From positions 62,001 to 126,000 of the forward strand of contig NZ_NHYM01000002.1 in the NCBI RefSeq assembly GCF_003288815.1: a DNA stretch of 64,000 nt, read 5' to 3'. Position 1 is the stretch's first letter, and the number at the start of each line of letters is the position of its first letter. Source of the DNA: Helicobacter sp. 16-1353. GTDB taxonomy: Bacteria; Campylobacterota; Campylobacteria; Campylobacterales; Helicobacteraceae. Positions 7,913 to 56,429 of this stretch are shown here, in pieces. The position numbers and the translations under genes were made by a program. Below the pieces are notes generated by a model. That model did not search any database. It saw only the letters and a list, made by a program, of their open reading frames with translations, and was not told the DNA's origin.

Positions 7913-9031
7913 TTAATTTTTATCAAGTAGCCAACAAGCTACATTTTTCGCACTGCCATATTGTAAATATTTGCGTATTTCTAGGCTTTTGGAGATAAAA
8001 TCATCATCTTTTGATTTATTATAGGCATCAAGAAGATTTTTTGCAGTTAGTTTATCTTGCAAGATTTCATAATGAAAAAGTGAATCTGGGTGAATCTTAC
8101 GATATAAAATATTTGCCAATCCAACATACTCAATATTTAAAAAATTTTTTACAACTAAAGCATCGAATTTCTTTGCTTTATATCCTAGCACAAATGGAGT
8201 TCCTATTATGGCACATTCTAGCGTCGCTGTGCCACTACAGATAAAGGCGAATTTGCTCTCATATAAGCTTAATTGTGCATCAAAAACAATATTAAAATCA
8301 CTTATATCATTGTAAATCTCATCTATTTTTCTATGCTTAAAATGCTTAGGAACGACTAAATTAAACACTAAATTAGAATCCTCTTTTTTTAGGATATTTT
8401 TTAACTCTCTAAAAATAGGAAAGATTCTATTTATCTCACCAATCCTACTACCCGGCATAAAGGTAATGAGATTCTTAGTATTGGATTCTAGAATCCTAGA
8501 ATCTTTAGATTCTGCATTAGATTCCACACTAGAATCTCCCCTAAAATGCGTTATTTCATCAAGCAATGGATGTCCTATAAAAACAGCTTTTGCTTGATAA
8601 TAAGAAATCTCAAAAGGCAGAGTCGCTGCTAATTTATCAAAATATTTTTCAATAGTTTTTGCACGCCACGGCTTCCAAGCCCAAATCTGTGGCAAAATAT
8701 AATACATTATAACCTTATTTGGATTAGCTTTTTTTATTTTCTTAGCCAAAGGAATGTGAAAAGATGAGCTATCAAGTAGCAGTATTTTATCGCACTCTAG
8801 GGCTAATTTAGACATTTCATTAGAAGCATTTAAGAAAAATGTTATTTTTTTAAAAACATCAACAAAGCCCATAATGGAAAATTGCTCTAATTCATATAGT
8901 GGAATCCCATATTCTATATCTTTCGAAAAAACCCCATATAAATCAAAATCTATGTGTTTTTTTAGCTCTTTTAATAAATATTGTAAATGTATATTAGAAG
9001 ATGGCTCTAGGGCACTTACAAAAAGTTTCAT
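7913..9031 (-). CDS. lpxB: Lipid-A-disaccharide synthase with a GAATC-derived insert
   Basis: Condenses UDP-2,3-diacylglucosamine with lipid X to form the lipid A disaccharide at the inner membrane. The 372-residue protein carries family landmarks: FVSALEPSSNIHLQYLLKEL at the start, MGFVDVFKKI, YILPQIWAWKPWR, FIGHPLLDEI and FMPGSRIGEI. Between the last two (residues about 164-188) is a Ser/Glu/Asn-rich insert (GDSSVESNAESKDSRI) encoded by repeated GAATC/GATTC units. It falls at the junction of the two GT-B halves, where a surface loop may tolerate it. Its start overlaps the upstream coiled-coil gene by four bases. Confidence 0.94.
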   Translation of the reverse strand: MKLFVSALEPSSNIHLQYLLKELKKHIDFDLYGVFSKDIEYGIPLYELEQFSIMGFVDVFKKITFFLNASNEMSKLALECDKILLLDSSSFHIPLAKKIKKANPNKVIMYYILPQIWAWKPWRAKTIEKYFDKLAATLPFEISYYQAKAVFIGHPLLDEITHFRGDSSVESNAESKDSRILESNTKNLITFMPGSRIGEINRIFPIFRELKNILKKEDSNLVFNLVVPKHFKHRKIDEIYNDISDFNIVFDAQLSLYESKFAFICSGTATLECAIIGTPFVLGYKAKKFDALVVKNFLNIEYVGLANILYRKIHPDSLFHYEILQDKLTAKNLLDAYNKSKDDDFISKSLEIRKYLQYGSAKNVACWLLDKN

Positions 9032-16463: not shown

Positions 16464-18211
16464 TTAATATTTTTTATAAACTAATATTTCCTGTGTAAGC
16501 CCAATAGCAAAATTTAATTTCCTACTAAGCAATTCTCCATATTCTTCGCAAGTAGCATTGACTTCATCAAAAAGCAATGCCCGCTCATCGTGAAATTCCC
16601 ATAAATTTAATTTTTCTAATATGCTACGAATAACCCTATAAAGCAATGTTGGCGTTGGATATGTGATTAAAACAATTCCGCCACTTTTTGCAAACTCAAA
16701 ATGTTTTATACACATAGCTCTTGTATTAGTTTTATTAAAATGCTCGATTAAACCAGCAGAAAACACCACATCAAAGCTAGAATCTATTGCTTTAGATTCC
16801 AATAAATTAAATAATATTGCTTTTTGTTTATGTGGCGATTTGGTCGCATATTTGTTATTAAAAGAATCCACACCTTTTTTAGAATTATCAAAAACGATAT
16901 AATCCGCATTGGCGTAGGATTCCCTAAAATCTTTATAAAAGCAGCTATCGCCACCGCCAAACTCGCAAATACGATGTATATTCTTATATTTTTTAAGTAG
17001 ATTCAAAATCATTGTTGCACTAATCTTTCTTGTAATATTTGATATTTTAAAATTATTATTTTTTCGTTTAGAATAATATTTTTCCCAATCTGTCGCCCTA
17101 GCACTTATCCCCCCCCCCATAGATTCTGTATTGATAGAATCTAGAATCTTAGCTTTAGAAGTGAAAATAAAAAATCTCTGCACTAAAAAACTAATAGCAA
17201 AAATCATTGATTCGCAAATTGGCTTAACTATAATCTCACTTACACCGCTATAATATGAGATAAACTTAATACCTTGCATAGAAATAAGCATTAAAACAAT
17301 GGTTAAGGAAATATAAGAAATGAGTTCAAATTTTAGATTCGCTTTTGTTTTGAAAACAATAGTTTTACCAACGATGAAATTAAAGCTTCCAGCGATGATT
17401 CTACCACTTAACATACAAGCAAAAAGTCCAAATCCTAAACTAAAAGCAATCACAAATACAACATAATCAATTAATGCAGTAAGAATGGAATTTCCAATAT
17501 GTCTAAATAGCACAAAATAAATACTTATGGAATCAAAAATAGGATTAAAATGTGAAGCGGCATTATTATTTATATAGATAGTTTTGATTGGGACTTGCAA
17601 TATTTTCATATTTTTATTACAAGCTAAAACTAGCATTTGCATTTCAAATTCATACCCATTATAGGTATTTTTCAACATCATTTTTGCAAAATCAGGACTA
17701 AATGCACGAAGCCCCGTTTGTGTATCTTGTATGGATTTACCAAACATAGTTTTAAATATTACTCTAGTTATTTTATTGCCAAATTTGCTTTTAAATGGGA
17801 TATTTTCCCCTTCAAACTTACGAACACCAATAGCTAAATCTATATCTACATTAGCAAGAAACATATCTCTTAAATGTAGTATATCTTCTACTTTATGCTG
17901 TCCATCGGAATCTGCCGTGATTATTAACTTCAAATTACTATAATTATTTAAGATAAAATTAATGCCATTTTTTAAAGCCGCACCTTTGCCAAGATTGATT
18001 GCATTGTGTAATAAAATCGCTTTTTTATTTATTTGTGAAAAAATAGCATCAAAACTCTTTGGAGAGCCGTCATTTACAATAACAACAGAGATATTTGAAT
18101 CTAATAGTGAATCAACAATATTAAGAAGTTCTGGAGTTGGTTTAAAGCTTGGAATTAAAGCGACTGCCCCCCCCCAATCAATGCCAAATTACCATCTTTG
18201 TAAATATCCAT
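16464..18211 (-). CDS. Phase-variable GT2-GtrA-methyltransferase fusion (out of frame as assembled)
   Basis: The gene starts at ATG 18211 but after 11 codons meets a G9 tract (18167-18175) and ends after 18 residues (IGGGQSL, stop). With G10 (or G7) it would read IGGGAVALIPSFKPTPE and stay open to 16464, giving 582 residues. Domains: a DPM-like GT2 domain (VIVNDGSPKSF, ADSDGQ, DTQTGLRAFS), a GtrA domain with four helices, and, after a second tract (G10, in frame at MGGGIS), a SAM methyltransferase (ICEFGGGDSCF, FSAGLIEHF). The GT2 should load a sugar on polyprenyl phosphate, GtrA flips it, and the downstream GT-C enzyme transfers it. Reading across both tracts is inferred from frame analysis. 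Confidence 0.85.
17109..17118. repeat. Homopolymer tract G10 (coding strand minus) joining GtrA and methyltransferase domains
   Basis: Ten C on the plus strand. At this length the frame runs through (ATG then three GGG codons, then ATA AGT). Nine or eleven bases would cut the protein after the GtrA domain and remove the methyltransferase. Homopolymer G/C tracts of this size slip readily in Helicobacter. Confidence 0.9.
18167..18175. repeat. Homopolymer tract G9 (coding strand minus) at the start of the GT2 gene
   Basis: Nine C on the plus strand, 36 bases after the ATG at 18211. Present length puts the gene out of frame; ten or seven would open it. The reading frame downstream of the tract is open without interruption to the end of the gene, so this is a switch and not general decay. 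Confidence 0.9.
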
Positions 18212-49183: not shown

Positions 49184-49217
49184 GTTATACCCCCCCCCAT
49201 TAAGGAAATATTAGAAA
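49184..49217 (-). promoter_or_regulatory. Poly-G promoter cassette of DUF262 gene A
   Basis: On the minus strand: TAATATTTCCTTAAT, then G9 (49190-49198), then TATAACGATG. TATAAC fits a -10 box, with the G tract filling the place between -35 and -10. The upstream part is nearly the same as in the cassette at 52154-52190. Slippage would change spacer length and promoter strength. The gene starts 67 bases further on. Confidence 0.6.
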
Positions 49218-52153: not shown

Positions 52154-52190
52154 ATTATAACCCCCCCCCTCCCCTTAAGGAAATATTATA
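52154..52190 (-). promoter_or_regulatory. Poly-G promoter cassette of the DUF262 fragment
   Basis: Minus strand: TTATAATATTTCCTTAAGGGGA, G9 (52161-52169), T, then TATAAT (complement of 52154-52159). The last is a consensus -10 box directly after the tract, 29 bases before the fragment's ATG. The 17 bases upstream share all but two with the gene A cassette. Confidence 0.6.
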
Positions 52191-52361: not shown

Positions 52362-54516
52362 ATGCGACTAAAAAATCTCATAATTTTCGTAACGGGGGGG
52401 GGGTATAATTATATCTACAAATCTATTCTCCCAAGACATCAAGGAAATTGATTTAGGCAAAACCGTAGTTAGTGCAAGTGGCTTTGAGGAAAATATCAAG
52501 GACGCTCCAGCCACGATTTCTATTATCCCTGAAGAGGAGTTAGTAAATCGCCCTATTAGGGATTTGGGCGATGCTTTGCAAGAGATTCCGGGTGTAAATA
52601 CAACTATTTCCAAAACAGGGGCTAGTAGCATTTCTATTCGTGGTTTAAGTGCGGGTTATACGCTAATTCTAATAGATGGCAAAAGGCAGAATGTCGCCTC
52701 TGGCTTTGGCGGAAGTGGATTTGACCCAAGCAGTGGCTTTATGCCGCCGGTATCGATGATAGAGCGGATTGAGGTTATTCGCGGTCCTGCGTCTATAATC
52801 TATGGAAGCGATGCGATGGGTGGCGTTATAAACATCATCACAAAGAAAAATACTAATATCTTAAGCGGGAGTTTTGCCACAGAGTTACGACTGCAACAGC
52901 ATAATGACACTTGGGGCGATATGTATGGATTTAATGGATTTGTGAGCTCTCCACTAGTGCAAAATAGCTTATTTCTAAATGTGCGAGGGCGATACAATGC
53001 CACTGGAGCGAATAAATTCTTAAAATCGTCCATTCCGGGCTACACAGGAGATACAACTACAAATCCCTACACAAGCCACTCTCCCACAGGCTATCGCATC
53101 GCAAGTGTGGGCGGGAGATTAACTTGGGATGTAGATTCTGCAAATTCGCTCTATGTAGATAGTGAGTTCAACTACCAAAATCTAGGCTCTCTAAATACGA
53201 GTAGTAGGCAAATTACGGCGATTAGAGATTATTATAAATACAATACCGTGCTAAATCACGATGGGGATTATTCGTGGGGGATTCTCAATACCTATATCCA
53301 ATATGCCGACACAAAGCAGATTCCCCAAATTATCGCAAATGTCGGCGATACAAAAGGACCACACAATCGAGGCACTTTGCAAGACTATCAAAATGCGGTT
53401 TTAAATAGCACTTGGAGAGATAGCTATGGCGTGGGTGAAGGGGCGATTATGGTGTATGCTGGGCTAAATTATAGCTATGAGCAGCTCGAACTACGAAGCA
53501 CGGATTTTGTGCGTCATCAAAATCAAGTGGCGATTTTCGGCGAGGCGGAATATTTGCCATTTGAGCTATTGTCCGCTACTTTGGGCTTAAGGATAAATTA
53601 TAGCGACCTTTATAACGCAATGCCAAATCCTAGATTCTACCTTAATATCAATCCTAGCGATTGGCTCACCATCAAAATGGGCGTTCAAAGTGGTATGAAA
53701 GTCCCTGCAATCGCCTATCTCTACGATGGCTACACGGAATCCACCTCAAACTCTAGCAATATTTACACATACGGCAATAGCAACCTACAAGCGGAGAAAA
53801 CTTGGAATTACGAGGCGAGTTTGATATTTGACACGGATTTTGCAAATATTTCTTTGACTGGATTCTACACGGATTTCCGCGATGCAATCGATGGCGTAAG
53901 CTACACCACTGGAGCAAATATGCCACGATATGGAGTCTGCTCTGCTGGGGAATGTGTGTTATACCAAAATGTGGATAAGGCATTTTCAAGTGGGGCGGAA
54001 GTTAGCTTTAAAACAACGAGATTCTATGGAGTTGGCTTTGATGCGACCTACGCATACACCTACACAAGGCAAATGTCAGGAGTTGATAAAGGTCTCCCGC
54101 TAAATCTCGTCCCAAGACACAATGGCTCTGCGAAAATCTCCTATCAAATCGATGCCTTTGATATGTATTTGCGATGGATTGGGAAATTCACAACGCCCAC
54201 TTCAAACGCACACACCGCAAATGCTGGGATTGGGGCGTATTATAAAAATGTGCATTTGCTGGATTTAGGGCTTAGCTATCGATTTGCTGGGGATTCTGAT
54301 TCTGGCGTTGGCTTAAGTGGGGATTCTGCGGATTCTGCGTTAGATTCCACGAGGCAAAATAATGTGGCTTGGACGCTTAGCTTTGTGGTAAATAACTTGC
54401 TTGATACGAATTTCGTGGATTATGTGGCGACAAATGGCGGAGCAAACTATACAAATCTATATCAACGAATGATTCCAAGCCGAAACTTTTGGGTGAATCT
54501 CAAAGCGGATTTTTAA
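52362..54516 (+). CDS. Phase-variable TonB-dependent outer membrane receptor (out of frame as assembled)
   Basis: The gene begins at ATG 52362 (MRLKNLIIFVTGGG) and runs into a G10 tract (52394-52403). As assembled the product ends after about 29 residues. With G9 (or G12) it reads on as IIISTNLFSQ, completing a signal peptide, then a TonB-box/plug region (DALQEIPGVNTTISK, SISIRGLSAGYTLILIDGKR, ERIEVIRGPASIIYGSDAMG) and a 22-strand-type barrel ending FWVNLKADF; about 717 residues. Such receptors take up ferric siderophores, heme or cobalamin. A GATTCT-coded Ser/Asp-rich stretch (GDSDSGVGLSGDSADSALDS) lies near the end. Ligand unknown; siderophore-type by resemblance to CirA/FepA. Confidence 0.88.
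52394..52403. repeat. Homopolymer tract G10 in the TonB receptor signal peptide
   Basis: Ten G on the plus strand, coding strand of the receptor. Nine or twelve would put the signal peptide and receptor in one frame; ten does not. The tract is followed at once by TATAAT. Confidence 0.92.
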
Positions 54517-55161: not shown

Positions 55162-56429
55162 TTAATGAAAAATTATTGGAATCTCTGGGTAATTTTTGAT
55201 ATTTGGAGAATCTAATCCAGCTAGATAGCCAAGCCCTTTTTTAAATGGAATTTTGTTTAGATTCTCTGTATTTTTTGGATTCGCCGGATTTTTCGCACTC
55301 TTTGCGGAATCTGCGGAATCCGCTCTAAAATCTGCAAAATCCAAATACACGCAATTAGATTCCGCTAAATTATTAGAATCTAAGTCGCTAACCAACCCAG
55401 CGACTAAGTCATTCCTAACATAGCTCACCTCAATTAGATTGCTTAAAAATAGCCCCTTGCCATAAAAAATACTTCCATTATTGTTAAAATGCGTGTGGAT
55501 AGGCGTGTAATACCGCCTTAGCTTCTCTAAAGCTGGTAGTCGCTTTTTCAATTTTAGGGGATATTCGGGGTTACAGCCCTGAAACTCAAACACAATCTGC
55601 GGAAAATACTGCGCCACAAAGCCCAAATCAACCTCCCTTAAAATATCCCATTCCGCGCCCTCAATGTCAATTTGCATAATATTATGGTGACTTTTATCCA
55701 GCCCATTTTCCCGCACCACACGCTCAAAGCTAATCGTATCATCGCTTTCAACCACGCCCACGAACTTTTTAATAAATGTGATATTTGGGTGATTATACGG
55801 AGCGGAATCTATACTTGCGTCGTATTGCAAGACTTTATAGCCCATATTTGCCATTTCTAAATCCCAAGGGGAATATGGCGAAACGCCGAGTGATAGGGCT
55901 TTGGGGGCGTTGGATTCTGTGGATTTTGCTGTGTTGGATTCTGTGGATTTCGCGCTAGATTCTGTGAGTTTGGATTCCGTGCTAGATTCTGCAGATTCTG
56001 CGGAATTTGCTGTTTTAGATTCTGCGTGATTTGTGGAGTTTAAAGCGTCTTTTGTGAGCTTATAGGGGGGGGGGTAAGCATTACATATCCGCCGTCATAT
56101 TCGCCACCGATTCGCTTCAATTTAGCTGGATTCACGCACATCGGTCGCACCAAATCCAAATATCTTTTGATATTTTCCACATTGTAGCTTAGCTGGATTG
56201 CACCTCTTGGGCTTGGATACATTGATAAAAATATCGCTTCTTTCGCTACTTTGGGGATATCCAGCTCTTTTATAATATCGCGTGAAAGCGTGAAATTATT
56301 CACCGCACTCATCGCATTCACCACCTCATCTATGCCAAGCAGCCTTTGGACTTTCCGCCGAATACGGTTTTTGCCATTGCCCAACATTCTCTTTAATTTT
56401 CGCCTAACGCGGAGCATAAAATTTACCAT
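55162..56429 (-). CDS. Phase-variable FkbM-family methyltransferase (out of frame as assembled)
   Basis: Starts at ATG 56429 (MVNFMLRVRRKLKRMLGNG, AAGGAAAG upstream). The first 120 residues reach GGEYDGGYVMLTPPP and a C10 tract (56065-56074), after which the present frame ends at 56040. With C11 (or C8) it reads through YKLTKDALNS, a Ser/Glu/Ala/Thr linker coded by GAATC repeats, LGVSPYSPWDLEMANMGYKV and the FkbM core (MQIDIEGAEWDILREVD; IVFEFQGCNPEYPLKLKK) to 55162; 422 residues. FkbM enzymes O-methylate glycans or other small groups, here probably surface sugars. A second small repeat-rich stretch (DFADFRADSADSAKSAKN) lies near the end. Confidence 0.85.
56065..56074. repeat. Homopolymer tract C10 (coding strand minus) in the FkbM methyltransferase
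   Basis: Ten G on the plus strand. Eleven or eight bases would join the N-terminal segment with the methyltransferase core; the present ten leads to a stop at 56040. In coding direction the tract is followed by TATAAG. Confidence 0.92.

What the first reader, a model, noticed from the sequence alone, without database searches (positions are those of the whole stretch)
55162..56429. FkbM methyltransferase split by a C10 tract with a repeat-coded linker
C11 or C8 would join the N-terminal segment to the core through a roughly 50-residue Ser/Glu/Thr/Ala linker built from GAATC units. As assembled the gene is off. The linker begins directly behind the tract, so a phase switch and an expanding repeat are placed side by side between two conserved parts of the enzyme.
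Basis: seen in the sequence. Interest (0 to 1): 0.6.

Follow-up and report, generated by a model that had tools for sequence, protein, structure and literature searches.

The report
Sugar methyltransferase with slippery on/off hinge
This bacterial gene for a probable sugar-modifying enzyme carries a slippery run of one base at the joint between its two halves, which in the assembled genome turns the enzyme off; nearly all relatives have a slippery repeat at the same joint, although its letters differ, so the joint looks like a favoured place for a random on/off switch.

Summary
On the minus strand an N-terminal reading frame (56429 to 56043) and an FkbM methyltransferase core frame (to 55165) lie in different frames, separated by C10 (56065-56074). 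About 54 Ser/Thr/Ala/Glu-rich codons with seven GAATC words follow.

Among 41 related copies (40 Helicobacteraceae, one Campylobacter), all have a slippage-prone repeat at or beside this joint: poly-C in 25, poly-G in 15, (GA)10 in 1. It lies between the DGGY motif and the first Rossmann strand in 39, just before the motif in 2, within the core in none. Twelve of 41 read through as one protein, near the one third expected by chance. Near-identical Helicobacter bilis-group genes carry C14 (on), C13 and C12 (off). A 42nd copy is fused and lacks the long tract. Repeat type changed at least four times on the tree. Best reading: a phase-variable glycan O-methyltransferase whose switch position is kept while the repeat is replaced.

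The GAATC linker is separate: a genome-wide, DNA-level proliferation of GAATC words tolerated in this hinge, not an expanding tandem repeat tied to the switch.

Phase-variable FkbM genes are already reported; the fixed hinge with interchangeable repeats is the new part. Substrate and switching are untested.

The parts
56043..56429 (-). N-terminal ORF, 129 aa, holding the conserved RIGGEYDGGYVML block before the tract; stop at 56040-56042
   Evidence: homologous N-terminal parts in 4 of 5 genus genomes, the own genome included
56065..56074 (-). C10 tract (G10 on the + strand): the frame-setting homopolymer
   Evidence: a G/C tract or (GA)10 at or beside this joint in 41 of 41 surveyed copies
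55906..56064 (-). Ser/Thr/Ala/Glu-rich linker codons; GAATC words lie within about 55913-56022
   Evidence: longer than 39 of 41 hinges, only L035 being longer
55165..55905 (-). Methyltransferase core: Rossmann strand 1 (KALSLGVSPYSPWDLE) to the C-terminus
55576..55767 (-). Stretch that matches Pfam PF05050 Methyltransf_21 (FkbM), 23.3 bits against a cut-off of 22.7
55246..55401 (-). Second GAATC-type low-complexity insertion in a C-terminal loop; a shorter, differing stretch in the own-genome paralogue, absent from the other three genus copies
   Evidence: alignment (coordinates worked out from it); GAWTC cluster at about 55251

Best explanation
A phase-variable FkbM-type (class I SAM-dependent) O-methyltransferase, probably acting on a deoxysugar of a surface glycan. 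The N-terminal helices and the RxGGxxDGGY hairpin are joined to the Rossmann core by a flexible hinge that holds a hypermutable repeat. Slippage during replication changes the tract length. In one frame a single enzyme of about 310-370 aa is made; in the other two a fragment of about 130 aa without the SAM site is made. The window copy and its own-genome paralogue are off in this assembly. Because the hinge tolerates Pro or Gly runs and inserts, the switch has stayed at this joint in Helicobacteraceae while its sequence changed (poly-C, poly-G, GA). GAATC words that proliferate in this genome have also lengthened the hinge here. Shown: the split frames, the conserved hinge repeats, on and off alleles in close relatives, and purifying selection on the core. 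Inferred: slippage as the cause, glycan as the substrate, and the selective benefit.
For: Tract or dinucleotide repeat at or beside the joint in 41 of 41 copies, and in the core in 0 of 41. 12 of 41 on (binomial against 1/3, p=0.62), with at least 10 state changes on the tree. H. bilis-group copies at 96-99.7% DNA identity outside the tract carry C14 (on), C13, C13 and C12 (off); three of these correspond to named records. A copy without a long tract is fused (L090). Both copies in this genome are off, yet the core dN/dS between them is 0.16/0.76. The window's core frame has no start codon before the SAM-binding strand. PF05050 match. The fold of an on-state relative is a class I methyltransferase (pLDDT 81, pTM 0.81), with FkbM structure 2py6 at Z 9.3, rmsd 3.8, 177 aligned. 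Sugar-gene neighbours in three relatives: dTDP-sugar epimerase, GDP-mannose dehydratase type, DegT aminotransferase, GT10 fucosyltransferase. Read-level tract variation for H. canadensis methyltransferase genes HCAN_0671 ((G)11-14) and HCAN_0647 ((G)9-12) in PMC2823697 (sections 5 and 7 read); homology of those two genes to this one was not tested.
Against: No reads were seen, so variation inside one population is not shown here. Tract lengths in assemblies can be wrong. All five copies of the window's own genus are off, which chance alone would give about 13% of the time. The window neighbours are no evident glycan cluster (gene labels there are recalled, not searched). The PF05050 score of the window core is barely over the cut-off, and the NCBIfam TIGR01444 score is under its cut-off (19.2 against 37.7). 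The fold confidence is low (block means 56-59) in the hinge itself.
Confidence: 0.85

Rival explanations
1. The gene is a decaying pseudogene; the tract is just where it broke.
For: Off in both copies of this genome and in all five genus copies. Some relatives are degraded: L071 has a second break, L072 several stops, L073 a truncated core.
Against: Core dN/dS of two off pairs is about 0.21 (window against own paralogue) and 0.13 (L032 against L033). The split is at the same joint in 29 off copies, and no core holds such a repeat. 12 of 41 are intact.
Confidence: 0.06
2. Two separately translated proteins that act together.
For: 20 of 29 off copies have some ATG, GTG or TTG in the core frame before the Rossmann strand.
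Against: 9 of 29 off copies, the window among them, have none. 12 of 41 copies plus L090 are one ORF. Each half alone lacks part of the modelled methyltransferase domain: most structural matches begin at residue 90-91, before the hinge.
Confidence: 0.03
3. Transcriptional or ribosomal slippage at the tract gives a low level of full-length enzyme whatever the genomic length, so the tract is an expression damper rather than a genetic switch.
For: Frames look unselected among assemblies (12 of 41 on), which would also follow if frame did not matter.
Against: (GA)10 replaces the homopolymer in L069 and the tract position moves in L032 and L033, which a specific slippery signal would not survive easily. 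Length differences among H. bilis-group copies fit genetic slippage. Untested, and compatible with a genetic switch as well.
Confidence: 0.06
4. Wrong tract length in the assembly; the gene is really on.
For: Homopolymers are error-prone in some data and no reads could be checked.
Against: 29 of 41 copies from many assemblies are off, among them one in a single-contig genome (G044, listed with 1 contig). The long-tract hinge would still be a phase-variable locus.
Confidence: 0.1

Closest known systems
FkbM-family methyltransferase gene ntHI0694 of Haemophilus influenzae 86-028NP with (G)12 (PMC2651432, one passage read)
   Same: FkbM-family methyltransferase gene with a G tract; the authors suggest O-methylation of LPS
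   Different: Tract in the 5' end of the ORF, one strain, and no conserved mid-protein hinge in the passage read
Helicobacter canadensis HCAN_0671 'methyltransferase, frame-shifted' ((G)13, reads 11-14) and HCAN_0647 ((G)11, reads 9-12) (PMC2823697, sections 5 and 7 read)
   Same: Poly-G in Helicobacter methyltransferase genes with tract length variation in reads; may be direct relatives of the poly-G copies found here
   Different: Not named FkbM there and homology not tested here; position in the protein and relatives in other species are not given in the sections read
Campylobacter phase-variable methyltransferases such as Cj0170 and UbiE_3 (PMC6321876, passages read)
   Same: G tracts in SAM-dependent methyltransferase genes
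   Different: Passages read give no tract position inside the protein; sequence not compared here
FkbM methyltransferase structure 2py6 (Methylobacillus flagellatus)
   Same: Class I methyltransferase fold, Z 9.3, rmsd 3.8 over 177 residues
   Different: 12% identity; whether its gene has any such tract was not examined

Membership tests
FkbM methyltransferase (PF05050) | Score over Pfam's curated cut-off | tested here: met
   23.3 bits for the window core against 22.7; on-state relatives 27.7-32.8
FkbM methyltransferase (NCBIfam TIGR01444) | Score over NCBI's cut-off | tested here: not met
   19.2 against 37.7; a divergent subfamily
Methyltransf_22 (PF13383) | Score over Pfam's cut-off | tested here: not met
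   15.2 against 22.4 on relative L026; not listed for the window core
Class I SAM-dependent methyltransferase fold | Rossmann-like methyltransferase fold with the SAM-binding first strand | tested here: met
   Model of relative L026, pLDDT 81; matches at Z 9-11 to methyltransferases, best row residues 91-289
SSR-mediated phase-variable (contingency) gene | Slippage-prone repeat inside the coding region that sets the frame | tested here: met
SSR-mediated phase-variable (contingency) gene | On and off alleles among very close relatives that differ in repeat number | tested here: met
   H. bilis-group C14 on, C13 and C12 off at 96-99.7% identity; not tested for the window's own species
SSR-mediated phase-variable (contingency) gene | Reversible switching inside a population | not testable with these tools
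   No reads or cultures
Expanding tandem repeat in the linker | Tandem array of near-identical units | tested here: not met
   Only a two-copy 9-mer (score 36) in the linker

The most novel reading that the evidence does not exclude
The joint between the DGGY hairpin and Rossmann strand 1 of this methyltransferase is a conserved 'switch socket': selection keeps a hypermutable frame switch at this place through a whole bacterial family, while the repeat that does the work is repeatedly lost and replaced by a different one (poly-C, poly-G, GA dinucleotide, with a moved position in one genus). Switchability itself, not the sequence, would be the conserved trait.
Probability: 0.55. Interest if true: 0.65.

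Novelty: new variant of a known kind. Interest (0 to 1): 0.5.

Why it matters
Phase-variable genes are usually listed strain by strain. Here one enzyme keeps its on/off repeat at a single structural joint in nearly every relative, across changes of repeat chemistry. That is comparative evidence that being switchable is itself under selection, and it shows how a protein hinge can host a mutable element without evident harm in the on state. It also predicts surface-glycan methylation as a randomly switched trait in many intestinal and gastric Helicobacter species.

Tried and rejected
Considered and set aside: (1) GAATC linker as part of the switch. Rejected as a placed pair: GAWTC (GAATC or GATTC) is 423 in the window against 128 expected from base composition, and 423 against 240 by a Markov expectation, with 8 clusters of five or more words in 150 nt. 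In 51 ORFs of 150 aa or more the words are raised in all three codon phases (observed 167/76/110 against about 61/22/37 after codon shuffling). Arrays number 98 in the own genome, reversed-pattern control 0. (2) Long hinges and GAATC arrays: over 19 genomes searched with one array pattern, the counts were G000 98, G046 46 (control 2), G073 21 (two tandem loci), G054 17, G004 and G040 2 each, G043, G044, G045 and G090 1 each, and nine others 0. The four long-hinge copies lie in G000, G046, G054 and G004. G004 is not set apart from short-hinge genomes, so the link is suggestive only. (3) Phage or plasmid origin: no match in phages and one weak plasmid match (33% over 66%). (4) PDB sequence search with relative L026 gave nothing better than E 0.39. 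(5) Paper searches: FkbM + phase variation + Helicobacter gave one paper, on the Geobacillus flagellin island by its title; further searches listed no paper on the conserved hinge; GAATC and GATTC searches listed nothing relevant. H. bizzozeronii Table 4 (PMC3234257 section 10 read) does not name an FkbM gene, though L028 of that species has C12 at the hinge.

Rows dropped before counts: of 60 rows, 43 were strong (E 3e-39 or better); L071 (core frame broken, but C12 present at the hinge), L072 and L073 (degraded or truncated, no tract found) were left out, giving 40 copies, plus L024. The 17 weak rows were not counted; three distant relatives given loci (L094-L096) were looked at. L090 came later and is told as a 42nd copy without a long tract.

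Full report
What is there. The window is G000:C22:62001-126000 of a 1.9-Mb genome. On the minus strand, an N-terminal ORF (56429 to 56043, 129 aa) carries LKRIGGEYDGGYVML, then a C10 tract at 56065-56074, and the methyltransferase core is open in another frame to 55165. As assembled, translation from the ATG stops about 7 codons behind the tract. The core matches PF05050 (FkbM) just over its cut-off; the N-terminal half matches nothing significant.

Family survey. A profile of five cores found matches in 48 of 121 genomes of the family and ten loci with organism names, nine of which appear to repeat the same genomes. I kept 40 copies with an intact core start plus one from Campylobacter troglodytis (L024). 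Each carries a slippage-prone repeat close before the Rossmann strand KAISLGVS: poly-C in 25, poly-G in 15 (9-17 units), and (GA)10 in L069. In 39 the repeat lies between DGGY and the core; in L032 and L033 (same genus as the window) it is G9 just before the RVGG..DGGY motif. Internal controls: core 0 of 41, N-terminal part 2 of 41 (those two), flanking bins 6 and 3 of 41. Hinge length is 30-203 nt, median 43, and 179 in the window.

State. Twelve of 41 copies are one open frame through the hinge (L024, L040, L042, L044, L045, L046, L050, L054, L057, L058, L059, and L063 as far as its contig goes); 29 are split. That is near one third (p=0.62), as free slippage would give. On the core tree the state changes at least 10 times and the repeat type at least 4 times; well-supported branches force at least 3 changes for poly-C and 2 for poly-G. 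Four H. bilis-group copies (L059-L062; three correspond to named records) are 96-99.7% identical outside the tract and carry C14 (on), C13, C13 and C12 (off). A later search of 298 genomes of the order gave a 42nd copy (L090), one 313-aa ORF whose hinge is an interrupted G-rich stretch with no run of 7: it looks locked on. Distant relatives in three genomes of genus g2 (L094-L096) are split instead inside the methyltransferase domain, at (AT)9 in two of them, while L094 has only (AT)4.

Not two genes, not a dead gene. In the window no ATG, GTG or TTG precedes the SAM-binding strand in the core frame; the same holds in 9 of 29 off copies in all, while 20 of 29 have some possible start. Core dN/dS between the window copy and its own-genome paralogue (L034; C9, also off) is 0.16/0.76, and 0.13/1.04 for L032 against L033, both off. 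N-terminal dS was saturated for the window pair, so I make no claim there.

Structure. AlphaFold2 of the on-state relative L026 with 16 aligned rows gives pLDDT 81 and pTM 0.81. The tract-coded proline run lies between the strand at 94-98 (DGGYVM) and the first Rossmann strand (112-116), in a stretch of low confidence (block means 56 and 59). Matches are class I methyltransferases (Z up to 11.3, rmsd 3.9, 164 aligned), among them FkbM 2py6 (Z 9.3, rmsd 3.8, 177 aligned). Most aligned ranges begin at residue 90-91, so the cut removes a part of the modelled domain from the core. The window's own linker was not modelled.

The linker. Its seven GAATC words belong to a genome-wide surplus: GAWTC is 3.3-fold over composition in the window while GA(C/G)TC is 0.13-fold. 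The surplus holds in all three codon phases, so it acts at the DNA level. Arrays with a 9-bp step occur 98 times in this genome, 0 times in G001-G003 and twice in G004. The four long hinges hold 18 GAWTC in 719 nt, the 37 shorter ones 6 in 1,701 nt. I read the linker as a tolerated by-product. Another FkbM gene of this genome (L002) has a similar ES-rich insert.

Function. In the copies L024 and L090 the gene adjoins a dTDP-4-dehydrorhamnose 3,5-epimerase, and in L090 a GDP-mannose dehydratase-type and a DegT aminotransferase gene lie close by as well; in L023 a GT10 fucosyltransferase frame lies beside it. Other neighbours scanned (TonB receptor in L025, AMP-binding enzyme in L030, nucleotidyl transferase in L022) do not point to surface sugars as clearly. 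The neighbourhoods of L026, L028 and L031 were listed but not scanned, and those of the remaining copies were not examined. O-methylation of a surface sugar is therefore inferred.

Known and new. A G tract in an FkbM gene is reported in H. influenzae, and poly-G methyltransferase genes with read-level variation in H. canadensis, one of them frame-shifted. My searches listed no paper on a family-wide switch at this hinge or on interchange of repeat types there. The kind of system is known; the fixed joint with replaceable repeats is the new variant.

Noticed in passing
whole window; clusters near 8401, 12401, 13276, 13626, 23551, 54276, 55251, 55901: GAATC/GATTC words are about 3.3-fold over composition, in all codon phases, and form 9-bp-step arrays inside coding sequence; scattered arrays are many in G000 and G046 and rare in most relatives searched. 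Cause unknown.
   Followed up: partly
52394-52403 (+): G10 at the 5' edge of a 707-codon open frame (52393-54513) that reads like a TonB-dependent receptor (label recalled, not searched), so this gene may also be phase-variable.
   Followed up: no
17109-17118 and 18167-18175: C10 and C9 on + (G tracts on the coding strand) inside one 574-codon open frame on the minus strand (16467-18188) that begins like a family-2 glycosyltransferase (label recalled, not searched).
   Followed up: no
49190-49198 and 52161-52169: C9 tracts outside any open frame of 75 codons or more; possible promoter-type repeats.
   Followed up: no
L001-L008 (own genome): All 8 PF05050 places of the genome, the window's included, have a G/C tract of 8 or more within about 1.5 kb, so several FkbM genes here may be switched.
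   Followed up: partly
L094-L096 (G009, G027, G026): Distant methyltransferase relatives are split within the domain; two of three have (AT)9 at the break, the third (AT)4.
   Followed up: partly
L010 and L012 (G002, G001): A second C9 tract lies about 0.5 kb 5' of the methyltransferase core in both genomes.
   Followed up: no
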